Shown here: in pieces, positions 3,942 to 27,816 of the stretch
Position numbering within the stretch: position 1 is the stretch's first letter
Layout of the letters: each line of letters opens with the position of its first letter
Assembly: GCF_963678245.1 (NCBI RefSeq)
Contig: NZ_OY782767.1
Coordinates: 558,001 to 622,000 of the forward strand
Origin: an uncultured Sunxiuqinia sp.
GTDB taxonomy: Bacteria > Bacteroidota > Bacteroidia > Bacteroidales > Prolixibacteraceae
Length of the DNA stretch: 64,000 nt
Direction: 5' to 3'
Position numbers and translations under genes: made by a program
The notes under the pieces: model-generated
What the model saw: the letters and a program-made list of their open reading frames with translations, nothing else
What the model was told of the DNA's origin: nothing
Database searches by the model: none

Positions 3942-5231
3942 ATGAAAATTGCACACATCATACCCGGTTCGGGCGGTAGCTTTTACTGCGGTAACTGCCT
4001 GCGCGATAGTAAGTACATGAAGGCTCTGCAGGATTTAGGTCAAGAGGTGATTAAGGTCCCTTTATACTTGCCGTTGTTTGAAGATGCGCATGACTTAAAC
4101 GACATCCCTGTTTTTTACGGGGCTGTGGATATTTATTTGAAACAGCGCTTCCCAATTTTTCGCCATATGCCAACATTTGTCGATAAAATGTTGAATTCAA
4201 AATCGGTTCTTCATCTTGCTGCTCAAAATGCCGGATCGACCCGTGCAAAGGGTTTGGAAGAAATGACTGTCTCCATGCTTTTGGGAGAAGAAGGCTTGCA
4301 GAAAGAAGAACTGGAACGCTTGGTGGAGTGGTTGCGCGATGACGCCAAGCCGGATGTTGTGCACCTTTCGAACGCACTGCTTTTGGGGCTTGCCCGACGT
4401 ATTAAGCAGGAAATGAATATTCCTGTAGTTTGTTCATTGCAGGACGAAGATGTATGGGTAGATGTGATGAGCGATAAGCATCGTGAAGAGGTTTGGCAAT
4501 TGATGGAAGAACGCGGTAGGGAAGTGGATGCCTTTGTCGCTGTCAGTCATTTTTACGCGAAAGAGATGTTGACGCGAATGCATATTCGCCGCGATCAGCT
4601 TTTCATCAATCATATTGGTGTAGATGCAGCCGATTACTCGGTAAAACCAGTTGAGCAAAAGGAGCCGATTATCGGATTCATTTCGCGCATGTGTGAAGAA
4701 AATGGCTTGGGCATATTGGTTGATGCTTTCATTCATTTAAAAGAAGATGAAGCTTACCAGTCGGTGAAACTTAAAATTACCGGTGGAAGAACAAACGACG
4801 ATACTCATTTCATTAAAGAGCAAAAGAAAAAAATTGCGAAAGCCGGGTTAGAAGGTGACGTATTTTGGGTCGAAGAATTTGAAAATCCTTCCCGTCAGAA
4901 ATTTTTTGATACCGTGGCATTATTGACGGTTCCTGTTTTGAACGGAGAAGCTTTTGGTTTGTATCAGCTGGAAGCATTAGCGTCAGGTATTCCTTTAGTG
5001 CAACCTAAACTTGGGGCTTTCCCTGAAGTGGCTGAGATTTCCGGTGGCGGATTGACTTATCATCCGAACAGTGCAAAGAAGTTAGCCAAAGTTTGGAAGA
5101 CGGTCATTTTGGATCAAAAAGAGCTGGCAAGGATGAGCCAACAAGGTTTGAAGGGAGTGAAGGCCCATTTTGATATTCATAAGCAGTCGGAAAAGCTCGT
5201 AGAAATTTATAAGAAGGTAACGATAAAATAG
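3942..5231 (+). CDS. Glycosyltransferase family 4 protein
   Basis: A 429-residue GT-B fold glycosyltransferase. The N-terminal domain opens with MKIAHIIPGSGGSFYCGN, the sugar-acceptor Rossmann fold. The C-terminal domain begins around residue 240 with PIIGFISRMCEENGLGILVDA and holds the nucleotide-sugar motif GEAFGLYQLEALASGIPLV near residue 328, where the two acidic residues are the usual E-x7-E pair of GT4 retaining enzymes. No signal peptide, so cytoplasmic. Donor and acceptor cannot be read from the sequence. It is followed after 60 bases by an ABC exporter pair, which makes an envelope-glycan or lipid role plausible but unproven. Confidence 0.85.
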   Translation: MKIAHIIPGSGGSFYCGNCLRDSKYMKALQDLGQEVIKVPLYLPLFEDAHDLNDIPVFYGAVDIYLKQRFPIFRHMPTFVDKMLNSKSVLHLAAQNAGSTRAKGLEEMTVSMLLGEEGLQKEELERLVEWLRDDAKPDVVHLSNALLLGLARRIKQEMNIPVVCSLQDEDVWVDVMSDKHREEVWQLMEERGREVDAFVAVSHFYAKEMLTRMHIRRDQLFINHIGVDAADYSVKPVEQKEPIIGFISRMCEENGLGILVDAFIHLKEDEAYQSVKLKITGGRTNDDTHFIKEQKKKIAKAGLEGDVFWVEEFENPSRQKFFDTVALLTVPVLNGEAFGLYQLEALASGIPLVQPKLGAFPEVAEISGGGLTYHPNSAKKLAKVWKTVILDQKELARMSQQGLKGVKAHFDIHKQSEKLVEIYKKVTIK

Positions 5232-9267: not shown

Positions 9268-9480
9268 TTATTTCCGCATCATCATGTGCATAATTCCACC
9301 ACCATTACTGACACTCTCAAATCCGGCTTGTTGCAATATTCGTTGACCGTATGCTGAACGGGCTCCGGAGGCACAGTAAAGTGTAATTTCCCGCGATTTA
9401 CTACCCAGTTCTTTCATACGACCGGTTAATTCATCCAGTGGAATATTAATGGCGTTTGGATAAGCACCACCTTGGAATTC
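9268..9480 (-). pseudogene. Third rhodanese domain, cut off by an in-frame TAG
   Basis: The minus-strand frame of the CoA-disulfide-reductase-like gene continues for 70 sense codons after its TAG at 9481-9483 and ends at TAA 9268-9270. The 70 residues are a good rhodanese half-domain: EFQGGAYPNAINIPLDEL at the start, active-site loop YCASGARSAY, and a NGGGIMHMM end. They align with the preceding intact repeat (EFESGAYPDAINIPLDEL, YCASGARSGY), and the VDVRTP just before the TAG completes the domain start. So the native protein was probably 758 residues with a GAG or CAG codon where TAG stands. Whether it is a mutation or a base-call error cannot be told here. Confidence 0.85.
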
Positions 9481-11544
9481 CTAGGGAGTGCGCACATCTA
9501 CCACAATTGGTTCATTTGAAGCAGTAGTTGTTTTTTCCTTGGGTTTTTGGTTTGCCATCATGGTTGTCAAACCACCGCCATTTTTTACATTGCTAAAGCC
9601 AACTTGCATGAGCATTCGTTGTGCATATCCCGAGCGTGCGCCTGAAGCACAATAAACGACAATCTCACGCGAAGCATTTTCTCCCAATTCTTCAAATCGG
9701 TACATTAATTCATCCAACGGAATGTTAATCGCATCGGGATAAGCGCCGCTTTCGAACTCTTCAACAGTACGCACGTCAACAACAATTGGTGAATGATCGT
9801 CGATTACCTTGCTGGTTGTCTGTTCTTCTTGCTCAGCTACTTCTTCTTCTAAAGTCTTATTTTCGATCTGTAGCAAATCAATCGCAATATGTTCAAATCC
9901 GATCGTTCTGGCGTGACGTTGCAATGACGTATGACCACCTGATATGTTGGTTACATCGCTAAATCCAGCTCCACGCAGTGTTCTCAGAGCTTGATGGCCT
10001 TTTTTGCCGGTTTCGTCATAAACGATTATTTGCCGGTCGGAAGGTATTTCATCCAATTGCTGTGATAGTAATTCGAGCGGAATATGAATCGCCCCTTCAA
10101 TATGAGTTTTTTCAAAAGCAAAAATGTCGCGCACATCAATGTAAACCGGATTTTTATCCGCTACAAAACTATCCAATTCAGAAGCTGTAACCGATGGACT
10201 GAAGCCTGACTTTCTGTTTTCAGCTGTGTACGCAGCCATATTGATGGCATCGTTTGCTGTTCCAATAGGTGGTGAGTAAGCCAAATCAATATCGGCCAAA
10301 TCGTGAATCGTTAGTTTGGTGGCAGCAGCAGTAGCAATAACGTCCAGACGTTTGTCTGCGCCTTTATAGCCGGCAGTTTGTCCACCTATAATAACTCCGG
10401 TGTTTCGATCGTAAACCAAAAGGCTGGTCACTGTTTCTGCTCCCGGATAATAGGCCGTGTGATGTTCTTTATGAACGGAGACAGCATCGGCATCAATTCC
10501 CAAAGCACGGGCTTGTTTTAATGACAAACCCGTAATTCCGGCAACAGCTTCAAAAACACGAACCACAGATGTTCCGATAGCTCCTCTGTATTCATGATTG
10601 CCTCCTAAGGCATTTTCGGCAGCGATTCGTCCTTGACGGTTAGCCGGTCCTGCTAAGGGAATACGGACTTTTTTACCGCTCACACGATGTTCAATTTCCA
10701 CCATGTCGCCAGCTGCGTAAATATTAGGATCGGAAGTTTGTAACTGAGTATTAACCAACAAGCCTCCCGCTTCTCCTAATTCTAATCCGGCATCTTTTGC
10801 GAGTTGCAGGGTAGGGCGTACACCAATCGACATGATTACGATATCAGCGTCTAATGTTTTTCCGTTACTGAGCGAAACGGTGTTGGATTTTATTGTGGTT
10901 ACTCCGGTGTTCGTGTGAATTCCCACTCCGTATGAAAGTAATTCATTTTCAATAAATCCGGCAGTTTCACCTTCCATAATACCCATTACGTGCGGCATCA
11001 TTTCAACTACATTTACGTTTAACCCTTGTTTTGCCAGGGCTTCAACCATTTCAAGTCCAATAAATCCACCACCTACAACTACGGCATTCTTTGGTTTTTT
11101 CTGTTCCAGATGCTCTGCAATTTGATCCATGTCATTCAACGTCCACAAGCTGAAAACATGATCCAGATCAGCGCCTGGTAATGTTGGATTGATTGGTTTC
11201 CCTCCCTGGGCCAAAATCAGCTTTGTGTACTCATAAGCTTTTTTTTCGCCGGTAATTGCATGAGAGGTCAACACTTGAAGTGCAGCTCTATCTATTTTAA
11301 CAACAGCGGTATTTGTATGCACATCTACGTTATACTGTTCCTTAAAACTTTCCGGACTCTGTAAAATCAGTTTTGAACGGCTTTTGATGTCTCCGCCAAT
11401 GTAATAGGGCAATCCGCAGTTTGCAAATGAGATGTCTGGCCCTGCTTCGAGCATAATTATTTGAGCTGAGGAGGAAATGCGTCTCACTTTTGCTGCAGCT
11501 GTTGCTCCGGCTGCAACTCCTCCTATAATTACAATTTTTTCCAT
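9481..11544 (-). CDS. CoA-disulfide reductase-like FAD oxidoreductase with rhodanese domains
   Basis: Residues 1-450 form a pyridine nucleotide-disulfide oxidoreductase: FAD motif GGVAAGATAAAKVRR, the single redox cysteine in SFANCGLPYYIGG (as in CoA-disulfide reductase), NAD(P) motif VVGGGFIGLEM, FAD motif IYAAGDMVE and a dimerization domain. A rhodanese domain follows (about 455-545), but its loop reads YDETGKKG, lacking the catalytic cysteine. A second rhodanese (about 585-670) has an intact YCASGARS loop. A third is truncated after VDVRTP by TAG 9481-9483. The family reduces CoA disulfides, persulfides or polysulfides using NAD(P)H. It lies 37 bases downstream of a thioredoxin gene, fitting a thiol or sulfane-sulfur pathway. 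Confidence 0.88.
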   Translation of the reverse strand: MEKIVIIGGVAAGATAAAKVRRISSSAQIIMLEAGPDISFANCGLPYYIGGDIKSRSKLILQSPESFKEQYNVDVHTNTAVVKIDRAALQVLTSHAITGEKKAYEYTKLILAQGGKPINPTLPGADLDHVFSLWTLNDMDQIAEHLEQKKPKNAVVVGGGFIGLEMVEALAKQGLNVNVVEMMPHVMGIMEGETAGFIENELLSYGVGIHTNTGVTTIKSNTVSLSNGKTLDADIVIMSIGVRPTLQLAKDAGLELGEAGGLLVNTQLQTSDPNIYAAGDMVEIEHRVSGKKVRIPLAGPANRQGRIAAENALGGNHEYRGAIGTSVVRVFEAVAGITGLSLKQARALGIDADAVSVHKEHHTAYYPGAETVTSLLVYDRNTGVIIGGQTAGYKGADKRLDVIATAAATKLTIHDLADIDLAYSPPIGTANDAINMAAYTAENRKSGFSPSVTASELDSFVADKNPVYIDVRDIFAFEKTHIEGAIHIPLELLSQQLDEIPSDRQIIVYDETGKKGHQALRTLRGAGFSDVTNISGGHTSLQRHARTIGFEHIAIDLLQIENKTLEEEVAEQEEQTTSKVIDDHSPIVVDVRTVEEFESGAYPDAINIPLDELMYRFEELGENASREIVVYCASGARSGYAQRMLMQVGFSNVKNGGGLTTMMANQKPKEKTTTASNEPIVVDVRTP

Positions 11545-18827: not shown

Positions 18828-19367
18828 ATTATGGTTTTTTAATCAATTGTATCTTTCGAGGTAAAATAAATTCATCTTCCTTAACAAAAACAGGGCATAA
18901 AGGTTTGTTGCAACGGCATTAAGATATCAAAAAAATATGAGATTTGGCAGGTTTATACACTCATGTTGTAGAAGCGTATTCTTTTATTTAGAATTAATAA
19001 AAAGAAGCGGATTGCTTTTTTCTTGATGAAATGAGTTGGTTGAAAATTGGAAATCGGAATTTAGTAGTGCTGATATTAATGAAAGAGACAAAAGCTGATT
19101 TTTGATTGTCGCAGACTTCAAACTTGCAGAAATTATAGAGTTTCTCGCTCATCCTTGTAGAATGTATATTCCATTTTAACCGAATGTGTTGGATAAATAT
19201 ACAGTGTTGAAAAAATAAACAAATATTTTAAGAGGTAGAAATACAGGTAGATAGGTGAATTCGGGGTGTTCACTGTTTAAAAATTCAACAATCCTTTCTG
19301 TTGAATCATTTAGCGATTTCACTTTCAATTGCCTGAAATTGAGATTGTTGATACCTGTGTGTTTTTT
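18828..19367. other. Intergenic region between acn and the redox module
   Basis: This divergent gap holds the leaders of acn (leftward) and of the PstS-like gene (rightward). I found no convincing small gene; a 65-codon minus-strand frame at 19176-19373 has no recognisable features. A clear TAnnTTTG promoter for acn was not identified. Confidence 0.4.
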
Positions 19368-19384
19368 TGGCACTCTATTTGGCT
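19368..19384 (+). promoter_or_regulatory. Possible sigma-54 promoter of the redox module
   Basis: TGGCAC (19368-19373) matches the -24 element. TTTGGC (19378-19383) lies near the -12 position, but the GG-to-GC spacing is 11 instead of the usual 10, so the match is imperfect. It is 85 bases before the ATG of the PstS-like gene. A GAFTGA-bearing NtrC-type regulator is encoded at the end of the same cluster, which is the reason for considering it. Confidence 0.3.
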
Positions 19385-19467: not shown

Positions 19468-21150
19468 ATGAAAACCTTTTTATTATTTTTTTCTCTGTTA
19501 TCATTGATTATTTGCAGCGTGACAGGTTTTTGCAATGAGGTCAGTGATACCCAGACAGGAGATGAGCCCACGTCCGGCGAAGTAAGATCTTTGTAGCTAA
19601 TGAGTTCTCCTGAGTTATCTGAACTGACATTGAATTGGGTGGACGACTTCGGTAAAACAAAGCCGGATCTAAAAATCGCTTTCTCACAAATAGACGATGG
19701 GGCAGCGATTGAACCGGAAACCCTCTATTTTCTTGATACCGATCAACAGGCAATGGATCAAAACGAGCTTGCGTGGAAGATGGTTATCGCCCACGATGTG
19801 ATTGTACCAATCATCAATTCCAAAAATCCACTTCTTGAGGAAATATACAGGATTGGGATTACTGCAGAAGATTTAGGAAAGGTTCTGTCTGAAGATTCGG
19901 GTTGGTCTTTAGTTGTGGATGGCGCACCCGAAAAGCCTATTAATTGTTTTATGTTGGATAATCAGCAGGTAGCTTCAACGATTACCAATTATACAAAAAC
20001 AGAGGTGCCAGCGTTTCAGACGACAACAATTGTTTCCGCACAGGACTTAATTTCATCCGTTCAGAGAGATCCATATGCGATTGGCTTTTGCAAACTTGTC
20101 GACGTTCTGCAACCGGAAACAAATGCTTTTACCGATCAAATCAGTATTCTTCCGGTTGACAAAAATAGAAACGGACGTCTTGATAGTTTTGAAAACATGT
20201 ATGACAGTCCCGATCAATTGACTAGGGGAGCTTGGATTGGAAAGTATCCACGGAGTTTATCTGGGAATATTTATGCACTGGCAACTTCGGAACCATCCAA
20301 TCAAACAACTTTAGACTTTTTGGTGTGGTTGAACAAGAATGGACAAAACTATTTAAATAACTCAGGCTATAGCATTCTTTCGGGTAGAGAAAAGACGGAA
20401 AACCTTCTGGCGTTGGTCAAGCCGGAGGCACAACCAACTTTGGCAGACGCTCCTTTAATTCCTTTGGGCTGGAAACTGGCGATTGGTACAATGATTTTAC
20501 TTTTACTTATCGTTCTGATCCGGTCCAGGCGTAAAGAACAGAATGGTATCCTAAGTGAAGATATTGCCACTACAAATTCGCTGAACGAGAAGTCCATTCA
20601 TGCACCCGCTGGTTTGTATTACGGAAAATCACACACCTGGGCTTATATGGAACCGGATGGAATGGTAATTGTCGGGATTGATGATTTTATGCAACATCTC
20701 ACCGGATCCCTCACTCAGGTTATAATGAGGGAATCAGGTGAGAAAATCCGCAAAGGTGAAAAAATTATAACTCTGGTTCGCGAAGGAAAACAATTGGATC
20801 TTTATTCGCCGGTTTCAGGAGTGATCAAACTACAAAATCAGCGATTGCATGATCATCCTGCCGGTATCAATGCAGCACCATACACTGATGGGTGGACCTA
20901 TTTAATTGAGCCGGCAAACTGGCATCGGGAAACCCGGTTTTTGTTAGTGGCTGAAAAGTACAAGGAATGGCTCGAAGATGAATTCAACCGGCTGAAGGAT
21001 TTTCTGGCCAATTCAGCCAATGCCAACGATAAGGTTTTTAATCAACTCATCATGCAGGATGGTGGCGAACTGACTGACCATGTTCTGGCCAACCTTTCAC
21101 CGGAAGTTTGGCAAGATTTTCAAACCGAATTTATTGATCATGCCCGCTAA
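19468..21150 (+). pseudogene. PstS-like/GcvH-like fusion, interrupted by an in-frame TAG after the signal peptide
   Basis: From ATG 19468 the frame reads a Sec signal peptide (MKTFLLFFSLLSLIICSVTG), 42 codons in all, then TAG (19594-19596), then continues uninterrupted for 517 sense codons. The first internal ATG (19600) would give a product without its signal. After the TAG come a PstS-like periplasmic binding domain (about 300 residues, with HDVIVPIINSKNP, DPYAIGF and a FLVWLNKNGQNYL end) and an EF-hand-like loop DKNRNGRLDSFE encoded at 20158-20193. A transmembrane helix (LAIGTMILLLLIVLI) and a cytoplasmic GcvH-like domain (SHTWAYMEPDG, LYSPVSGVIK) complete it. The typical lipoyl-lysine spacing is off by one residue. 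First gene of the redox module. Confidence 0.8.
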
Positions 21151-21183
21151 CGAATTTGAAAATCCTCACTAAATATTGAAACT

Positions 21184-22044
21184 ATGGGATTAAATCGACG
21201 AGGCTTTTTTAATGTACTGGCTGTCACAGGAGCATCTCTGGCAGTTGGTAAAAAGACGGTTGCCTCACCAAAAAGTGAAAAAGAGATTGAATTCTACGGG
21301 ATTTTATACGATTCTACCCGTTGTGTGGCTTGTCGCACCTGCGAGTATGAATGCGCTGCTGCACATGGATTGCCTGAACCTCCGGCAGAGGTTGAAGCTA
21401 TTCGAAAAACGGACGAAACCTGCAACACCGTGGTTAATACCTTTCAAACTGAAAACGGGGAAGTGTATACGAAACGGCAGTGTATGCATTGTAATGAACC
21501 AGCCTGTGCATCCGCCTGTCTCACTCAGGCGATGCATAAAAGCAAAACCGGCCCGATTACCTGGAATGGCGATAAATGTATGGGATGCCGATACTGTATG
21601 GTTTCCTGTCCGTTTGACATGCCAAAGTTTGAATACCAGAGTACCAACCCCAAAATTCAGAAATGTGACATGTGCATGGAGAGGCAACAAGCTGGAGAGG
21701 TACCAATCTGTGTTGCAAATTGCCCTGCCGAAGCCGTTCTTTTTGGGAAACGCCGGGATTTGATTAACGAGGCCCGAAGGCGAATTTATGAAAATCCTGA
21801 TCAGTATGTTGATCATATTTATGGCGAACACGAAGCTGGAGGAACCGGATGGCTCTACTTATCTTCTGTACCATTCGAGGAACTAGGAATGAATACGCAC
21901 CTGCGACAGTCTTCTTACCCCGAGCTTACGAAAGGGTTCCTGTACAGTGTTCCATCAGTATTTGTGCTGGTGCCAACTTTATTATTGGGCATTCATCAGG
22001 CAACAGTAAACAATCACCTAAAAGTAGATGATAACGATGAATAA
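21184..22044 (+). CDS. Four-cluster [4Fe-4S] ferredoxin subunit, HybA/DsrO-like, with TAT-type signal
   Basis: A 286-residue protein. The N-terminus NRRGFFNVLAVTGASLAVG resembles a twin-arginine signal. Cysteine groups follow the HybA/DmsB/DsrO pattern for four [4Fe-4S] clusters: CVACRTCEYEC, CMHCNEPACASAC, CMGCRYCMVSC with the later CDMC, and CVANC. A C-terminal hydrophobic segment (FLYSVPSVFVLVPTLLLGI) would anchor it in the membrane, as in HybA. In related complexes this subunit relays electrons between a catalytic partner and an NrfD/HybB membrane protein. Its 3' end overlaps the next gene by up to 17 bases. No hydrogenase, molybdopterin or cytochrome catalytic subunit is encoded nearby. 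Confidence 0.88.
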   Translation: MGLNRRGFFNVLAVTGASLAVGKKTVASPKSEKEIEFYGILYDSTRCVACRTCEYECAAAHGLPEPPAEVEAIRKTDETCNTVVNTFQTENGEVYTKRQCMHCNEPACASACLTQAMHKSKTGPITWNGDKCMGCRYCMVSCPFDMPKFEYQSTNPKIQKCDMCMERQQAGEVPICVANCPAEAVLFGKRRDLINEARRRIYENPDQYVDHIYGEHEAGGTGWLYLSSVPFEELGMNTHLRQSSYPELTKGFLYSVPSVFVLVPTLLLGIHQATVNNHLKVDDNDE

Positions 22045-23266
22045 AGAAATTCAACTAGCAGCCGACCGTGATGGAAAATCCATCTGGAAATTTCTTCTAA
22101 GTGAGCTAAAACCCAGAGGCAAATGGCTCATGCCTTTTAACCTGATCTCCATACCGATTATTCTGGTGGGTCTGGCTTTAATTGTCCTTCGCTTCGCAGA
22201 AGGGCTCGGTGCCGTTTCAAACATCAACCAGGAAATTCCCTGGGGCTTGTGGAAAGGCTTTAATGTGGTAACTGGTGTGGCTTTTGCCGGAGGAGCTTAT
22301 GTATTGACTTTCATTGTTTATATTCTGAAGGTCGATAAGTATCACTCCATTGTTCGGGTAACGGTGCTGAATGGCTTTTTGGCCTATTTGTTCTACGCCG
22401 GGGCGCTGGTACTCGACCTGGGCAAACCCTGGAACATCTTCAACCCGATTATTGGCAATAGTTTTGGAGCCAGCTCTGTATTGTTTCTGGTTGCCTGGCA
22501 CTTTTTGTTGTATATTGTTGCCCAGCTCATTGAGTTCTCGCCGGCAGTAGCCGAGTGGTTGGGAGCAAAGCGGGCTCACAAAATTTTATCGGGGCTGACC
22601 TTGGGAGCCGTTATTTTTGGTATCACCTTGTCAACCTTACACCAGTCAGGTTTGGGGGCGCTGTTTCTCATGGCCAGCGAGAAAATTCACCCCCTGTGGT
22701 ACAATGAATTTATTCCACTTCTGTTTCTGGTGTCCAGCGTTTTTGCTGGCTTGTCGATGGTCATTTTTGAAGGCTCAATCAGCCAGCGCGTGTTTTTCAG
22801 GAAGATCAGCTCAAAGAATCGTGAAGCACGCAACAATATGGTTCAAAGCTTGTCGAAGATTTGTGCTTTCGGTATGTTTGCCTACCTGTTCATGCAATTT
22901 CTGGTGTTTATTCACGGACAGCACTGGGACTTGCTGAACACCCCCATGGGATACTGGTTTCTGCTTGAAATCATTGGTTTCGTGGCTGTTCCGACGATTT
23001 TGTTTTTCTATGCCTCTCGCACATCCAGCTTGTTGCTGAGCCGGGTGGCCGCCATCATCACCATTGTGGGAATTATTGTGAACCGGCTCAATGTGTCAAT
23101 TATCGCTTTTCGCTGGGATGCTGCCGTACGCTATGTTCCTTCCTGGATGGAGATCGTGGTCAGCATTACCATCATATTAATTCAAATTTGGATTTTCAGG
23201 TGGGTCATTAGCCGCATGCCGGTACTGGACGAACCCCCTAAATGGGCTAAAAATAACAGTCGTTAA
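22028..23266 (+). CDS. NrfD/HybB-like polytopic membrane subunit
   Basis: A 412-residue integral membrane protein with about nine to ten hydrophobic helices and the HybB-like segment WGLWKGFNVVTGVAFAGGA near residue 72. NrfD-family proteins bind quinone and couple with ferredoxin subunits to exchange electrons between the quinone pool and periplasmic redox partners, sometimes with proton movement. Two in-frame starts, ATG 22028 and ATG 22037, both overlap the ferredoxin gene, indicating translational coupling; the latter (MNKEIQ) is equally plausible. The neighbouring ferredoxin subunit fits a two-subunit membrane module. Confidence 0.9.
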   Translation: MITMNKEIQLAADRDGKSIWKFLLSELKPRGKWLMPFNLISIPIILVGLALIVLRFAEGLGAVSNINQEIPWGLWKGFNVVTGVAFAGGAYVLTFIVYILKVDKYHSIVRVTVLNGFLAYLFYAGALVLDLGKPWNIFNPIIGNSFGASSVLFLVAWHFLLYIVAQLIEFSPAVAEWLGAKRAHKILSGLTLGAVIFGITLSTLHQSGLGALFLMASEKIHPLWYNEFIPLLFLVSSVFAGLSMVIFEGSISQRVFFRKISSKNREARNNMVQSLSKICAFGMFAYLFMQFLVFIHGQHWDLLNTPMGYWFLLEIIGFVAVPTILFFYASRTSSLLLSRVAAIITIVGIIVNRLNVSIIAFRWDAAVRYVPSWMEIVVSITIILIQIWIFRWVISRMPVLDEPPKWAKNNSR

Positions 23267-23309
23267 ACCCCCTTGTTGCCAATAAAGAACAACCTAGAAA
23301 TAAAATGTT

Positions 23310-24020
23310 ATGGACGGATTTACATATACCAATATTTTTGAAACCAAAGGAATCGAATACCTGGCTATCATTGCCTTCTTTCTGATTATGGTTCCTTTTT
23401 GGATGTTATTGACACGAAAGTCGAAACAAACCATGCAACCCCAACTGGCTGACGGACTCATCACGGCCAAATCACTGCGTATTCCTCAAGGAATCTTTTT
23501 TAGCAAGTTTCACAGTTGGGCCTACCTTGAGAAAACCGGTAAAGCCCGGGTTGGACTCGATGACCTGCTGCTTCATCTGACTGGTGAGGTAAGTATCAGC
23601 CATCTGCGGGAGCCGGGCGAGCAAGTACTAAAAGGAGAGTTATTAACCCGAATTAACCACGATGGTAAAAGTCTGAAAATTTTTGCTCCCATCTCCGGCG
23701 AAGTTATGCGAACCAATGAACAGCTGGTGGACGATCCCGGTCTGATGAAGGCCGATCCGTACCAACAAGGATGGATGTACGTGATTAAGCCATCGAACTG
23801 GAAAGTTGACACTGATACCCATTACCTGGCCGAAGATGCCAGCGCTTGGGCTGCCCGTGAGCTGGATCGTTTCAAGGACTTTTTGTCGGTCTCGGTGATG
23901 AAGCATTTGGCCAACCCAAATCAGGTGGTGCTACAGGATGGTGGTGAACTGATTGACCAGCCGCTGGCTGAACTTCCGGAAGAAGTCTGGAGCGATTTTC
24001 AGCAGACTTTTCTGAGTTAA
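23310..24020 (+). CDS. Membrane-anchored GcvH-like (biotinyl/lipoyl-fold) protein
   Basis: A 236-residue protein with one N-terminal transmembrane helix (IEYLAIIAFFLIMVPFWMLL) and a cytoplasmic GcvH-like domain: FHSWAYLEKTGKARVGLDD, a hairpin GKSLKIFAPISGEV and a WMYVIKPSNW strand, then a helical tail ending in LPEEVWSDFQ. The tail parallels that of the PstS-like fusion (LSPEVWQDFQ), so the two are paralogues. In glycine-cleavage H protein the lipoyl lysine lies six residues before the aromatic of the Y-[SA]-P-x-S-G strand; here a GK pair places lysine at five. Modification is thus uncertain. It ends the redox module at a strong terminator. Confidence 0.82.
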   Translation: MDGFTYTNIFETKGIEYLAIIAFFLIMVPFWMLLTRKSKQTMQPQLADGLITAKSLRIPQGIFFSKFHSWAYLEKTGKARVGLDDLLLHLTGEVSISHLREPGEQVLKGELLTRINHDGKSLKIFAPISGEVMRTNEQLVDDPGLMKADPYQQGWMYVIKPSNWKVDTDTHYLAEDASAWAARELDRFKDFLSVSVMKHLANPNQVVLQDGGELIDQPLAELPEEVWSDFQQTFLS

Positions 24021-24042
24021 GAGATTGAATAAAACAATTGCT

Positions 24043-24092
24043 TCCGACTGGTAACACTTTAGCATGACTAAAGTGAGCCAGTCGGATATTTT
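24043..24092 (+). terminator. Strong terminator after the redox module
   Basis: A nested hairpin: outer stem TCCGACTGG (24043-24051) with CCAGTCGGA (24078-24086), inner stem CACTTTAG (24055-24062) with CTAAAGTG (24068-24075), followed by TATTTTTG. It separates the structural genes from the two-component system. Confidence 0.8.
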
Positions 24093-24233
24093 TGTTTCCG
24101 GACGCAGGCCTTTTGTGGTATCTTTTTTACTTAGAATAATGAACAGGTGTTGTAAAACAAGATCACGAATCGAATCTGGTTTCAATTATAAAAATTAACT
24201 TCGTCCTGAGTAACTAACTTTTTGCCTTTACCT

Positions 24234-25899
24234 ATGCCTTGGTATAAAAGAATGAAAAACAAAAACCATATCGGAACACCCCTTGTCAAAGGGTATGTCA
24301 AGTTCCGGTCGTCCATCTACGGACGTGTTGTATTTATTATCACAATCGCTTCGCTAGTGCTGTTTGTTTCTTTCGGGGTTATTTTTCGCTCGGTCAATGA
24401 AAATTACATGAAATCGGTGATCAGCGAAAACGGCAATAACATTGGCTATCTGGTTGAAGGTGCTTTGTACGATGCCATGTTAAAAAATGACCAAGCTTCG
24501 CTCCAAAGAACCTTGGATCTTATCAACTCCATGTCGGGTATTGATAACGTGAGTATGTATGATAACAGCAACAACCTGGCCTATACGTCAATTTCGCCCA
24601 ACTCGCCCAATCATAGCGATCCTGACTGCGCCAGTTGCCACGAGGATTTTGAGCATTTCGCGCGACGAAAAATCTTACCGCATTATAGAAGCGAAAAGCG
24701 AATGCATTATGAACCCGGAGAATGACAGCATTCGTAACTTGATGATCAAGTCGCCCATTCTGAATAATCCATCCTGCTTCACTGCGGCATGTCATGCCCA
24801 CAGCGCAGACGAAAAAGTGCTTGGATCGTTAATCATTAAAATGCCGCTAAAAAAGTTGGACAGCGCATTACAAGAATCAACCACTGATTTCTTTTTGATG
24901 GCCGCACTGATGACTGTCATACTTATTGTGTTTTTAATCCTGTTCACCAATAAGAAAATTAAAAATCCACTCAACAAGATTATTTTGGCCTCAGAGGCAG
25001 TAGCCAAAGGAGACAAAAATACACGACTGGAAATCAGATCAAACCAGCTTTCAGACATGCGCATGGTTTCCTATGCTTTCAACAAAATGCTGGATAACCT
25101 GCAAACGGCAACAACGGAGCTTCAAAATTGGTCACAACAACTGGAATACAAAGTCCAGAAGAAATCAGAAGAACTGGGACAAGCGCAGAATGAGTTAATT
25201 AATATTGAGCGGATTTCGTCACTCGGCAAATTATCCCTTTCGGTTGCCCATGAAATCAACAACCCACTTTCGGGCATTTTAGTGTACACAAAGTTGATCC
25301 ACAAACAGCTAAGCAATCCAAACCTGGATCAGGATAAAGTTGGCACGATGCTAAAACATTTAAAATTTATTGAAAGCGAAACGAAGCGTTGTGGAGACAT
25401 TGTGAAAGGATTGCTGGACTTTTCAAGAAAAGACCAAGAAGGTTTTGAGCCACGCCATTTGCATGAAATCCTGACGGACACTGTGGAACTGATGACCCAC
25501 CCTATGAAAATTGCCAACATTCATTTTCTATCCGATTTTTCTGCCAAAAAGGATTTAATCTCGTGTAGTCCCAATCAAATTAAACAAGTCTGCATTGCGA
25601 TTTTGGTCAATTCCTCGGAAGCCGTTTCTGAGAATGGTGAAATTGTCGTTTATTCCCATAACCCAGACAATGAACAGATCAGGATCGAATTTACTGATAA
25701 TGGAATTGGAATTGCAGAAGAAGATCTTCCCCACGTTTTTGAACCCTTCTTTTCAACCAAGGAGAAAGCTAGCGGTATTGGCCTTGGCTTGTCAGTAGTA
25801 CATGGCATTGTGCAAAACCACAAGGGAAAGATTGAAGTGAAATCAGAACGTGGGAAAGAAACGACTATAGCCATCACCTTACCTTTAATAAAGACATAA
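24234..25899 (+). pseudogene. Membrane sensor histidine kinase with heme-binding motifs, +1 frameshift
   Basis: Starts at ATG 24234 or 24252. Order: TM1 (VVFIITIASLVLFVSFGVIF), a periplasmic domain with CASCH (24627-24641) and CFTAACH (24775-24795, a C-x4-CH form), TM2 (FFLMAALMTVILIVFLILF), HAMP, a coiled coil, the DHp box with phospho-acceptor histidine in SVAHEINNPLSG, and a HATPase with DNGIGIAEEDL and GIGLGLSVVHGI. The frame breaks between the two heme motifs. Dropping one A from the A5 run at 24668-24672 restores a continuous product (ARRKSYRIIEAKSE). The two motifs suggest covalent c-type heme and redox, oxygen or NO sensing. Paired with the regulator that starts 10 bases later. Confidence 0.82.
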
Positions 25900-25909
25900 A
25901 AAACAAACC

Positions 25910-27251
25910 ATGGCGAAGAAAATATCCATATTGATTGTTGATGATGAAAGGTCTGTCAGGGACTCCCTGTGCAGTTGGTTTATCGAAGACGGTTACCGTG
26001 TTGTCTCTGCAGAAGATGCAAAAAAAGCATTGTCGCTAATTGAATCCGAAACTTTCGATATTGTGCTGGCCGATATTAAAATGCCCGGAATGGATGGGCT
26101 GGAGATGTTGAAGCGGATCAAAACCATCCGAAAAGAGGTCATTGTCATTATGATGACGGCGTTTGCGATGGTTGATACCGCGGTGCAGGCGTTAAAAGAT
26201 GGCGCATTCGATTATGTGACTAAGCCTTTTGATCCGGACGACCTGTCTCATTTGATTCGCAATGCCTCCAGACAGATCAGTCTGATGGAGGAAAATGAGG
26301 TGCTAAAAGATAAAGTGGTTTCGCTTGAAAATGTGGAAGACCTGATTGGCGAAAGTAAGGCTATGCAACAAGTACTTCTAGAAATTGAGAGTGTTGCACA
26401 ATCCACCGCTTCGGTTATTATTACTGGTGAAAGCGGAACCGGAAAGGAACTGGTTGCCCGTGCCATTCATGTCAATTCGCCCCGCAAATTTTTCCCATTG
26501 GTTAGTGTGCATTGCGGAGCTTTGTCCGAAAGTTTGCTGGAAAGTGAATTGTTCGGCCACGAAAAAGGAGCTTTCACAGGAGCTGTTTATAACCGGAAAG
26601 GTCGGTTTGAAATGGCTGACAATGGAACAATTTTTCTGGATGAAATAGCCACCATCTCAACAAAAATGCAGGTAGAATTATTGCGAGTGCTGGAAACCAA
26701 AAGCTTTGTTCGGGTTGGTGGAAACAAGGAGACCAAGTCCGACTTTCGGGTTATTTGTGCGACCAATCGCGACCTAAAAACGATGGTGGACAATGGAGCA
26801 TTCAGAGAAGATTTATTTTTACAGGCTCAATGTGGTCAATATTCGTGTTCCGCCGTTGCGCGAGCGAACGGAAGACATTCCTTTGTTGACCGAGTATTTC
26901 ATCAAAAAGTACTGCACTACCATGAACCGGCCGGTCATGTCTATCGAGCCGGCAGCATTGTCGCGGTTAGCAGAGTTTCCGTTTCCTGGCAATATTCGCG
27001 AACTGGAGAATATGATAGAAAGGGCAATTGTGGTTGGGAACGGCAAAAAGATCTGCTTGAAAGATTTGCCAATCGAAAAAAACAAATCGATGCCGTCCTT
27101 TGAGAGTCTCAATGAACTGGAGAAACATCACGTCCTTCAAATTCTGGACAAATACAATTGGAATATTTCCGTTTCTGCAAAGGCCCTGAAAATTGACCGG
27201 GTGACTCTGTACAATAAAATTAAGAAGTACAATTTAAAACAAAGCAACTAG
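25910..27251 (+). pseudogene. NtrC-type sigma-54 response regulator, +1 frameshift
   Basis: Receiver domain (residues 1-120; phospho-acceptor in VLADIKMPGMDG, switch lysine in VTKPFDP), AAA+ domain with Walker A GESGTGKE, the sigma-54 loop GAFTGA and Walker B TIFLDE, then a Fis-type helix-turn-helix (SVSAKALKIDRVTLYNKIKKY). The frame breaks inside the AAA+ domain. Removing one T from the T5 run at 26816-26820 gives the expected REDLFYRLNVVNIRVPPLRER. As sequenced, the product would stop at 27103 without its DNA-binding domain. It follows the kinase gene by 10 bases, so they form one transcription unit. The likely target is the redox module just upstream. Confidence 0.85.
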
Positions 27252-27264
27252 ATTGGCATTGAGA

Positions 27265-27816
27265 ATGAAGCCGGAAAGCATCAAATTAATTTCATTTGGA
27301 TATTTTGGGAGAGATTTTCTCGCCGAAATCATTCATGATGTGGAACGCGAATTCTCGGTACTGGTAAGAACACAGGAAGGATACCTCGATTTAAGCGAAT
27401 ATTTTGAGCCTGCCCGCAAACAATATGATGGCAATAGATTGTTGGAAGAAATTGGAAGGCGTTTTGCTTCGGACAAATCAAAAACCTTAGGGATTTTAAA
27501 TGTTGATCTTTACATCCCTATTTTAACGTTCATTTTTGGTCAGGCTTATTTAAACGGAAGATGCGGCATCGCATCAGCGTACCGTTTGAAAAACGAACGC
27601 TATGGGCTTGAAGCCGATGAAACGGTTTTCGTTGACCGGTTGCGCAAAGAAGTGATTCATGAACTCGGTCACACCTTCGGTCTGATCCACTGCCAAAATC
27701 CAGTCTGCGTGATGCGTTCAAGCACTTACGTTGAAGATATCGATCAAAAAAGCTGGTCATTCTGTTCCAAATGCAGGACGAAATTGGATACTTCATTTGT
27801 TTCAGAATCTATCTAG
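27265..27816 (+). CDS. Archaemetzincin family zinc peptidase
   Basis: I choose ATG 27265 (MKPESIKL) as start; a TTG at 27253 in the same frame is less likely. The 183-residue protein has the extended metzincin motif in HELGHTFGLIHC, then CVMRSSTYVEDID with the conserved MRSS turn, and a CSKC pair, the zinc-binding pattern of archaemetzincins (AMZ, M54). The glutamate in HELGH should be the catalytic base. Physiological substrates of bacterial members are unknown. It begins 13 bases after the response regulator stop, so it is probably co-transcribed with the two-component genes. Confidence 0.88.
   Translation: MKPESIKLISFGYFGRDFLAEIIHDVEREFSVLVRTQEGYLDLSEYFEPARKQYDGNRLLEEIGRRFASDKSKTLGILNVDLYIPILTFIFGQAYLNGRCGIASAYRLKNERYGLEADETVFVDRLRKEVIHELGHTFGLIHCQNPVCVMRSSTYVEDIDQKSWSFCSKCRTKLDTSFVSESI

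What the first reader, a model, noticed from the sequence alone, without database searches (positions are those of the whole stretch)
19468..27816. Uncharacterised redox module with PstS-like, NrfD, ferredoxin and two GcvH-like membrane proteins, next to a heme-motif sensor kinase
Seen: a periplasmic PstS-like domain joined through one membrane helix to a cytoplasmic GcvH-like domain; a four-cluster ferredoxin with TAT-like signal and C-terminal anchor; an NrfD/HybB-like membrane subunit; a second GcvH-like membrane protein; then a kinase with CxxCH and C-x4-CH motifs, an NtrC-type regulator and an archaemetzincin. Known: ferredoxin plus NrfD pairs connect the quinone pool to a periplasmic catalytic subunit in Hyb, Dsr, Hmc and related complexes. 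Here no such subunit is encoded. Inference: this is a distinct electron-transfer or signalling complex in which GcvH-like domains sit at the inner membrane face and a PstS-like domain senses or binds an anion outside. It could be an undescribed respiratory or sensory module.
Basis: partly seen in the sequence, partly recalled or inferred. Interest (0 to 1): 0.8.

Follow-up and report, generated by a model that had tools for sequence, protein, structure and literature searches.

The report
Signal-controlled quinone electron-transfer gene block
A conserved, apparently unstudied set of seven bacterial genes pairs a membrane electron-transfer unit with haem-sensing regulators and a protease; three of the seven genes look broken in this strain, and relatives suggest that its odd GcvH-like parts are outputs of a signalling relay.

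Summary
Missed: three look broken here (in-frame stop, two frame breaks); relatives carry intact copies. The block recurs in the family, the order and other classes of the phylum. No enzyme recurs beside it over lineages; multihaem cytochromes do. Archaemetzincin is co-inherited with it (72 of 75 carriers against 2 of 65 in the family; 31 of 33 against 3 of 362 in a phylum sample), in some genomes unlinked. The GcvH-like domains lack the lipoyl lysine. In sister operons the same kind of GcvH-like membrane protein carries a receiver domain, next to the haem kinase. That suggests the GcvH-like domain is an output module of a phosphorelay acting on a quinone-linked, Hyb/Hmc-type electron-transfer pair that exchanges electrons with multihaem cytochromes. 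A sigma-54-like promoter and a palindrome lie upstream. The PBP domain kept none of the phosphate loops compared, so anion sensing is unsupported. The core is of a known kind; GcvH/receiver control and the protease partner appear in no paper listed by ten full-text searches. The mechanism is inferred.

The parts
19284..19305 (+). palindrome TTCAACA-N8-TGTTGAA, candidate binding site of the NtrC-type regulator
   Evidence: 0 in 100 shuffles of the window; 3 exact sites in the whole genome, the other 2 inside genes; left half TCAACA in all 6 Sunxiuqinia upstream regions aligned, right half variable
19366..19382 (+). sigma-54-like promoter element TTTGGCACTCTATTTGG, about 90-100 bases before the first ATG
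   Evidence: TGG[CT]A[CT]N5TTG upstream of 30 of 34 PBP-type relatives against 7 of 582 other genes; the -12 half reads TTGG, not TTGC
19468..19596 (+). signal-peptide start of the PBP-TM-GcvH gene, ended by an in-frame TAG (19594-19596)
19600..21150 (+). rest of PBP-TM-GcvH protein (516 aa): PBP_like_2 domain, EF-hand-like loop 20158-20193, one TM helix, non-lipoylated GCV_H-like domain 20614-20979, helical tail
21184..22044 (+). Tat-type tail-anchored ferredoxin, 16 conserved Cys (room for four 4Fe-4S), HybA/HmcB-like
22028..23266 (+). NrfD/HybB/HmcC-like membrane subunit, expected to react with quinone
23310..24020 (+). TM + non-lipoylated GCV_H-like domain + conserved helical tail
24234..25899 (+). 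histidine kinase with periplasmic CxxCH/CX4CH domain; frame broken near 24655
25910..27251 (+). NtrC-type response regulator (REC, sigma-54 AAA+, Fis HTH); frame broken near 26817
27265..27816 (+). archaemetzincin (M54) with intact HExxHxxGxxH

Best explanation
A quinone-linked electron-transfer unit of the HybA/HybB (HmcB/HmcC) kind: NrfD-like subunit in the membrane, four-cluster ferredoxin tail-anchored in the periplasm, exchanging electrons with multihaem c-type cytochromes encoded elsewhere. Its two GcvH-like membrane proteins are not lipoyl carriers but regulatory subunits that dock at the cytoplasmic face and turn electron or proton transfer up or down. They descend from, or are paralogous to, TM-receiver-GcvH proteins that the neighbouring haem kinase would phosphorylate in sister operons. 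The kinase senses periplasmic redox state through c-type haems and, through the sigma-54 regulator, switches on the operon. Archaemetzincin belongs to the regulatory half (kinase-regulator-protease) and probably removes or trims one component. Shown: gene content, order, conserved motifs, receiver fusion, co-inheritance, promoter footprint. Inferred: docking, gating, electron partner, haem binding, protease target. In the window's strain the copy is probably recently disabled.
For: GcvH-like domain lacks the lipoyl Lys: 5 of 132 sequences have K there. Seven of 71 NrfD genes (in L161, L163, L178, L179, L192, L193, L195) have receiver-GcvH neighbours (both domains found by Pfam in six proteins from three of these loci). 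A profile of 21 window-type TM-GcvH proteins scores eight TM-receiver-GcvH proteins at 97-116 bits against 71 for the genome's true GcvH, and in two of them runs on through the helical tail. Same kinase type: 65 of 65 with CxxCH, 64 of 65 with CX4CH. Multihaem proteins within 7 kb on the same strand of 13 of 71 NrfD genes; apart from the regulator they are the neighbour class seen to recur across lineages of both clades; a homologous cytochrome cluster lies elsewhere in this genome. Archaemetzincin: 72 of 75 against 2 of 65, 31 of 33 against 3 of 362; kinase-regulator-protease stays together when separated from the other genes in three genomes. Promoter and palindrome.
Against: No docking or phosphorylation is shown; the window's own GcvH-like proteins have no receiver. 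Soluble receiver-GcvH proteins score below true GcvH with the window-type profile (47-62 against 71 bits). 0 of 34 PBP-type NrfD genes has a multihaem protein within 7 kb on its strand (one, L190, within 9 kb). A c554-type cytochrome is only weakly associated with the block in the family (43 of 75 against 23 of 65). In the other NrfD clade 22 ferredoxins lack a Tat signal, so topology is not uniform. Structure models were poor. The promoter's -12 half departs from the usual TTGC, and by the classical consensus the signal is weaker.
Confidence: 0.42

Rival explanations
1. A plain respiratory complex in which the GcvH-like proteins are static structural subunits; kinase and regulator act on transcription only, archaemetzincin is a maturation protease.
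For: sigma-54-like promoter and palindrome upstream of the operon suffice for control by the NtrC-type regulator; GcvH-like proteins of the window have no receiver.
Against: The same GcvH-like protein family is fused to receivers next to the same kinase type beside seven NrfD genes over two NrfD clades.
Confidence: 0.32
2. A sensory device rather than a respiratory one: NrfD and ferredoxin report the state of the quinone pool or periplasm to the kinase; no net respiration.
For: No multihaem gene within 7 kb on the same strand of any PBP-type NrfD gene (0 of 34); kinase, regulator and protease are co-inherited; in one clade the ferredoxin has no signal peptide.
Against: Sister operons contain 13- to 19-haem cytochromes and b-type cytochromes, as in electron-transfer chains; keeping four clusters (16 or more Cys in 63 of 65) is costly for a sensor.
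Confidence: 0.17
3. A lipoyl-dependent pathway (GcvH or sHdr-LbpA style) with lipoylated H-like carriers.
For: GCV_H Pfam matches above cut-off.
Against: Lipoyl Lys absent in both window proteins; of 132 sequences (these two included) 127 lack it; NCBIfam GcvH cut-offs not met; membrane anchoring and receiver fusion.
Confidence: 0.02
4. In this strain the block is a dying relic, or carries sequence errors, and does nothing here (compatible with any of the readings above for its relatives).
For: Three of seven genes broken by three different kinds of change, one a multi-base deletion; sampled background 6 of 97 genes, four of these only stops in the first 27 residues.
Against: dN/dS of the pieces 0.01-0.15 against the nearest relative, so any loss is recent; the break in a T run could be a sequencing error.
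Confidence: 0.6

Closest known systems
Hmc complex of sulfate reducers (HmcA-F; NCBIfam NF045715, NF045714)
   Same: Best NCBIfam hits of ferredoxin and NrfD subunit; sister operons also hold multihaem cytochromes
   Different: Scores below the curated cut-offs; no HmcA, HmcE or HmcF hit in the window's block; GcvH-like proteins, haem kinase and archaemetzincin have no counterpart there that I know of (recalled)
Hydrogenase-2 HybA/HybB of E. coli
   Same: Tat ferredoxin with C-tail beside a NrfD/HybB-type subunit
   Different: No hydrogenase subunits in the block; below cut-offs
Tail-anchored ferredoxin + HybB-like quinol oxidase modules (PMC10924467, section 12 read)
   Same: Gene pair and order; c-type cytochromes in place of a catalytic subunit in several loci described there
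   Different: That section reports no pattern of conserved flanking genes for its three-gene module and names no GcvH, receiver-GcvH or metzincin partners
GcvH, glycine cleavage H protein
   Same: Profile match over the domain
   Different: No lipoyl Lys; TM anchor, helical tail, receiver or PBP fusions
Class 40H c-haem sensor domains (PF21563; Geobacter origin recalled)
   Same: Periplasmic CxxCH in a two-TM receptor; weak hit of a sister kinase (E 0.005)
   Different: Second CX4CH motif; attached to histidine kinase

Membership tests
Hmc complex | HmcB and HmcC equivalog scores | tested here: not met
   323.5 of 420 and 381.6 of 550 bits
Hmc complex | 16-haem HmcA, HmcE, HmcF in the operon | tested here: not met
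   no hit in the nine frames scanned; no CxxCH-rich ORF seen in the block
Hydrogenase-2 (HybOABC) | HybA and HybB equivalog scores | tested here: not met
   227.2 of 263 and 248.3 of 450 bits
Hydrogenase-2 (HybOABC) | hydrogenase large and small subunit beside the pair | tested here: not met
   no such hit in the nine frames of the block; frames outside the block were not scanned
Tail-anchored ferredoxin / HybB-like module | Tat signal, 16 Cys, C-terminal hydrophobic tail, HybB-like gene directly downstream | tested here: met
   (signal and tail by reading the sequence)
Tail-anchored ferredoxin / HybB-like module | adjacent c-type cytochrome gene | tested here: not met
   none in the window's block; 0 of 34 PBP-type, but 13 of 71 NrfD genes in all
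GcvH (lipoyl carrier) | lipoyl lysine and curated score | tested here: not met
   Gly at the place in both proteins; 72.9 and 63.8 of 115.85 bits
PstS phosphate-binding protein | PBP fold profile | tested here: inconclusive
   28.2 bits, cut-off 27; the S. dokdonensis copy 17 bits
PstS phosphate-binding protein | phosphate-binding loops | tested here: not met
   alignment with 4gd5: the GST, GSS/GSG, SR and SGT loop residues (roles recalled) are not kept
NtrC-type regulator | REC + sigma-54 AAA+ with GAFTGA + Fis HTH | tested here: met
   in two pieces because of the frame break; GAFTGA read
c-haem sensor kinase | haem c motifs in the periplasmic domain | tested here: met
c-haem sensor kinase | covalent haem and redox response | not testable with these tools
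   needs protein
Archaemetzincin | curated score and HExxHxxGxxH with Cys zinc site | tested here: met
   162.2 of 145 bits

The most novel reading that the evidence does not exclude
Non-lipoylated GcvH-like domains are a new class of response-regulator output: phosphorelay-controlled subunits that gate a quinone-linked membrane electron-transfer complex from its cytoplasmic face, with archaemetzincin as the dedicated protease of the system. Respiration would then be switched post-translationally by a periplasmic haem redox sensor.
Probability: 0.35. Interest if true: 0.85.

Novelty: new variant of a known kind. Interest (0 to 1): 0.62.

Why it matters
It would be a widespread, unnamed branch of the NrfD electron-transfer family with a dedicated redox-sensing control system, and a direct phosphorelay-to-respiratory-complex link through an unexpected domain. 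It also gives bacterial archaemetzincins, for which two searches listed no paper on an operon role, a strong functional context: a system with which one branch of them is almost perfectly co-inherited in this phylum.

Tried and rejected
Anion sensing by the PBP domain: not supported, for lack of phosphate loops. Lipoyl carrier: rejected. Molybdoenzyme as partner: recognised only in L183 and L184, which lack GcvH and kinase. Other enzymes as partner: neighbours were clustered, not all scanned; apart from the regulator and multihaem proteins, the recurrent clusters that were named (a PQQ/BamB-like propeller in 8 loci, saccharopine dehydrogenase in 6, GH3 in 4) lie in family-level genomes only. 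c554-type cytochrome as obligate partner: not supported. Regulon search by the palindrome: the two other sites lie inside genes. AlphaFold models of the PBP-GcvH protein (pLDDT 52.6) and of the kinase sensor (54.5) were too poor to search with. Plasmid searches (one search capped at 5000 records) showed, in the rows listed and annotated, receivers and other signalling proteins, HybB and true GcvH. Presence outside the phylum could not be tested. Literature: ten searches (one search was on Sunxiuqinia genomes) listed no paper that by its title or start of abstract is on the block; only PMC10924467 was opened (passages and section 12).
Full report
WHAT IS THERE. The window lies in a genome of the genus Sunxiuqinia or very near it (family Prolixibacteraceae): the nearest named locus is S. 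indica, 95% identical over the second GcvH-like protein. Seven genes stand in a row on the + strand: (1) PBP-TM-GcvH, (2) ferredoxin, (3) NrfD-like, (4) TM-GcvH, (5) histidine kinase, (6) NtrC-type regulator, (7) archaemetzincin. Upstream neighbours look like aconitase, isocitrate dehydrogenase and citrate synthase (named by eye, no call); as a row of three beside the block they are seen only in S. indica among the loci mapped.

THREE GENES LOOK BROKEN. Gene 1 starts at 19468, meets TAG at 19594-19596, and resumes at 19600 without its signal peptide; gene 5 breaks near 24655 and gene 6 near 26817. Five other Sunxiuqinia loci (L002-L006) have full frames. Of 280 S. indica ORFs in 20 stretches, 104 had a testable counterpart in the stretches held of this genome; 9 were flagged as broken, 3 of them in this block. 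Of the other six, four have stops only within the first 27 residues, one has a stop at residue 688 of 758, one has a frame break plus a stop. 3 of 7 against 6 of 97 gives p 0.013. In the reverse direction 3 of 106 were flagged, one being the regulator itself. dN/dS of the pieces of the block is 0.01-0.15, so any loss is recent.

CONSERVATION. Within the family 75 of 140 genomes have a block-type GcvH-like protein (best E below 1e-40; counted). Neighbourhoods of 72 loci were read (a first set); they held 71 NrfD genes over 250 bits in 69 loci (L008, L047 and L057 had none). The loci were picked for a hit, so the counts describe architectures, not frequencies. Within 7 kb on the same strand, a GcvH-like protein lies by 66 of 71; archaemetzincin by 55 of 71 (32 of 34 PBP-type); a multihaem protein (three or more CxxCH) by 13 of 71; a molybdopterin enzyme by 2 of 71 (L183, L184, without GcvH or kinase). 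Other enzymes were not scanned for one by one; instead 347 further neighbour ORFs (150 aa or more, within 9 kb, same strand, from 67 loci) were clustered. The regulator recurs in 54 loci; next come a PQQ/BamB-like protein in 8 related loci, multihaem proteins in 8 loci (L160, L161, L185, L190, L192, L193, L195, L198), lineage-bound neighbours, a 12- to 13-haem family in 6 loci and a 4-haem family in 3 (names). The NrfD profile found 59 of 395 phylum genomes and 33 of 295 order genomes at E 1e-50.

TWO CLADES, TWO FORMS. An NrfD tree of 71 rows (midpoint root, the program warns of long branches) splits into 41 rows (34 PBP, 3 AMZ, 2 receiver, 2 molybdoenzyme type) and 30 rows (20 AMZ, 5 receiver, 5 other). 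So AMZ type and receiver type both occur in both clades. By a strict pattern 35 of 65 ferredoxins have a twin-arginine start; of the 30 others, L160, L162, L180 and L181 show one by eye, L007 and L031 were called from an inner start, L183 and L184 are the molybdoenzyme type, and 22 of the second clade (receiver-type kin excepted; the start of L169 is doubtful) have none.

GCVH-LIKE DOMAINS. Both window proteins have Gly where lipoyl Lys sits in the genome's true GcvH; 5 of 132 block-type sequences, the two of the window included, have Lys there. The genome holds one further GCV_H match, the true GcvH. Near the receiver-type NrfD genes the proteins are REC-GcvH and TM-REC-GcvH (Pfam on six of them). 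A profile made only from 21 window-type TM-GcvH proteins scores eight TM-REC-GcvH proteins of the seven loci at 97-116 bits, against 71 for the true GcvH, and in two (L178, L179) runs on through the helical tail. Because receivers are cytoplasmic, this places the GcvH side in the cytoplasm. The soluble REC-GcvH proteins and the second GcvH-like proteins of the other clade score 47-62 bits, below the true GcvH.

SENSOR AND PROTEASE. 65 of 65 kinases near NrfD have CxxCH and 64 of 65 CX4CH (L185 lacks the latter). Archaemetzincins: 56 of 57 keep HExxHxxGxxH, 54 of 57 the Cys part in the form tested. Co-inheritance in the family is 72 of 75 carriers against 2 of 65 non-carriers (the misses G019, G050, G137 and the extras G017, G029 are all assemblies of 410 or more contigs). 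In the phylum sample it is 31 of 33 against 3 of 362, the two misses being the receiver-type genomes G274 and G449; 26 of the 31 are linked within 10 kb, 5 are not, four of these lying on other contigs. The cut-offs there (NrfD 397 bits, archaemetzincin E 1e-40) were set after seeing gaps in the lists; at E 1e-12, 52 genomes match the archaemetzincin profile, 21 of them without block-type NrfD, 18 of these by weaker hits (E 4e-25 or worse). Related genomes are not independent, so p-values overstate. In G110 and G132 kinase, regulator and archaemetzincin sit together away from the NrfD genes (in G132 beside a second PBP-GcvH gene); in G108, where no NrfD was seen in the stretches read, away from the PBP-GcvH gene.

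CONTROL REGION. TGG[CT]A[CT]N5TTG lies within 250 bases upstream of 30 of 34 PBP-type, 8 of 23 AMZ-type, 0 of 7 receiver-type and 1 of 7 other operons, against 7 of 582 other genes of the same loci. Within Sunxiuqinia it stands out of largely unconserved sequence. The last base of the -12 half is mostly G or A, unlike the usual TTGC (consensus recalled). Scoring by the classical consensus was less striking: 23 of 71 score 12 or more of 14, against 21 of 582. Upstream lies TTCAACA-N8-TGTTGAA at 19284-19305, in none of 100 shuffles; two further exact copies in the genome lie inside genes.

PBP DOMAIN. Its profile finds PstS structures at E 5e-6 at best, aligned piecewise. 33 of 35 copies over 430 aa have an EF-hand-like loop, in the window DKNRNGRLDSFE (L007 and L181 differ), which suggests bound calcium.

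ELECTRON PARTNER. Sister operons carry 13-haem and 19-haem cytochromes and b561-type proteins. In one order-level relative (L185) three multihaem genes lie directly upstream of the block; five proteins of that cluster have homologues, 33-58% identical, and a nearby Crp-like regulator one of 39%, on contig 10 of this genome, in a cluster with NapC/NrfH-like, b-type and c554-type proteins. This is one case only.

MECHANISM. See Best explanation: composition and links are shown; docking, gating and the partner are inferred. Closest described systems are Hmc, Hyb and the tail-anchored ferredoxin modules of PMC10924467 (section 12 read); the equivalog cut-offs of Hmc and Hyb are not met. Ten searches of the open library, which lacks most subscription papers, listed no paper on the block.

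Noticed in passing
window 9271-11544 (-): ORF ends at a TAG 70 residues before the end of its S. indica relative (residue 688 of 758).
   Followed up: partly
L204 (G000 contig 10, 298001-318000): Multihaem cytochrome cluster (6-, 7-, 6- and 4-haem proteins, b-type cytochrome, CcsB-like protein, Crp-like regulator), homologous in part to the cluster next to the block in L185.
   Followed up: partly
L059, L056, L058, L164, L173 and others: Second GcvH-like protein with an N-terminal Cys motif (C-x-W ... C-D-x5-C-x2-C), possibly a metal or Fe-S site; 14 of 96 GcvH-like proteins by pattern.
   Followed up: partly
L183, L184: Related ferredoxin-NrfD pair beside a molybdopterin oxidoreductase, without GcvH or kinase.
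   Followed up: partly
L182, L187, L198: Duplicated haem kinase or archaemetzincin genes inside or next to the block.
   Followed up: no
L057 (G146): PBP-like protein (324-aa frame) matching the first gene at E 1e-32 without GcvH or NrfD beside it; context not explained.
   Followed up: no
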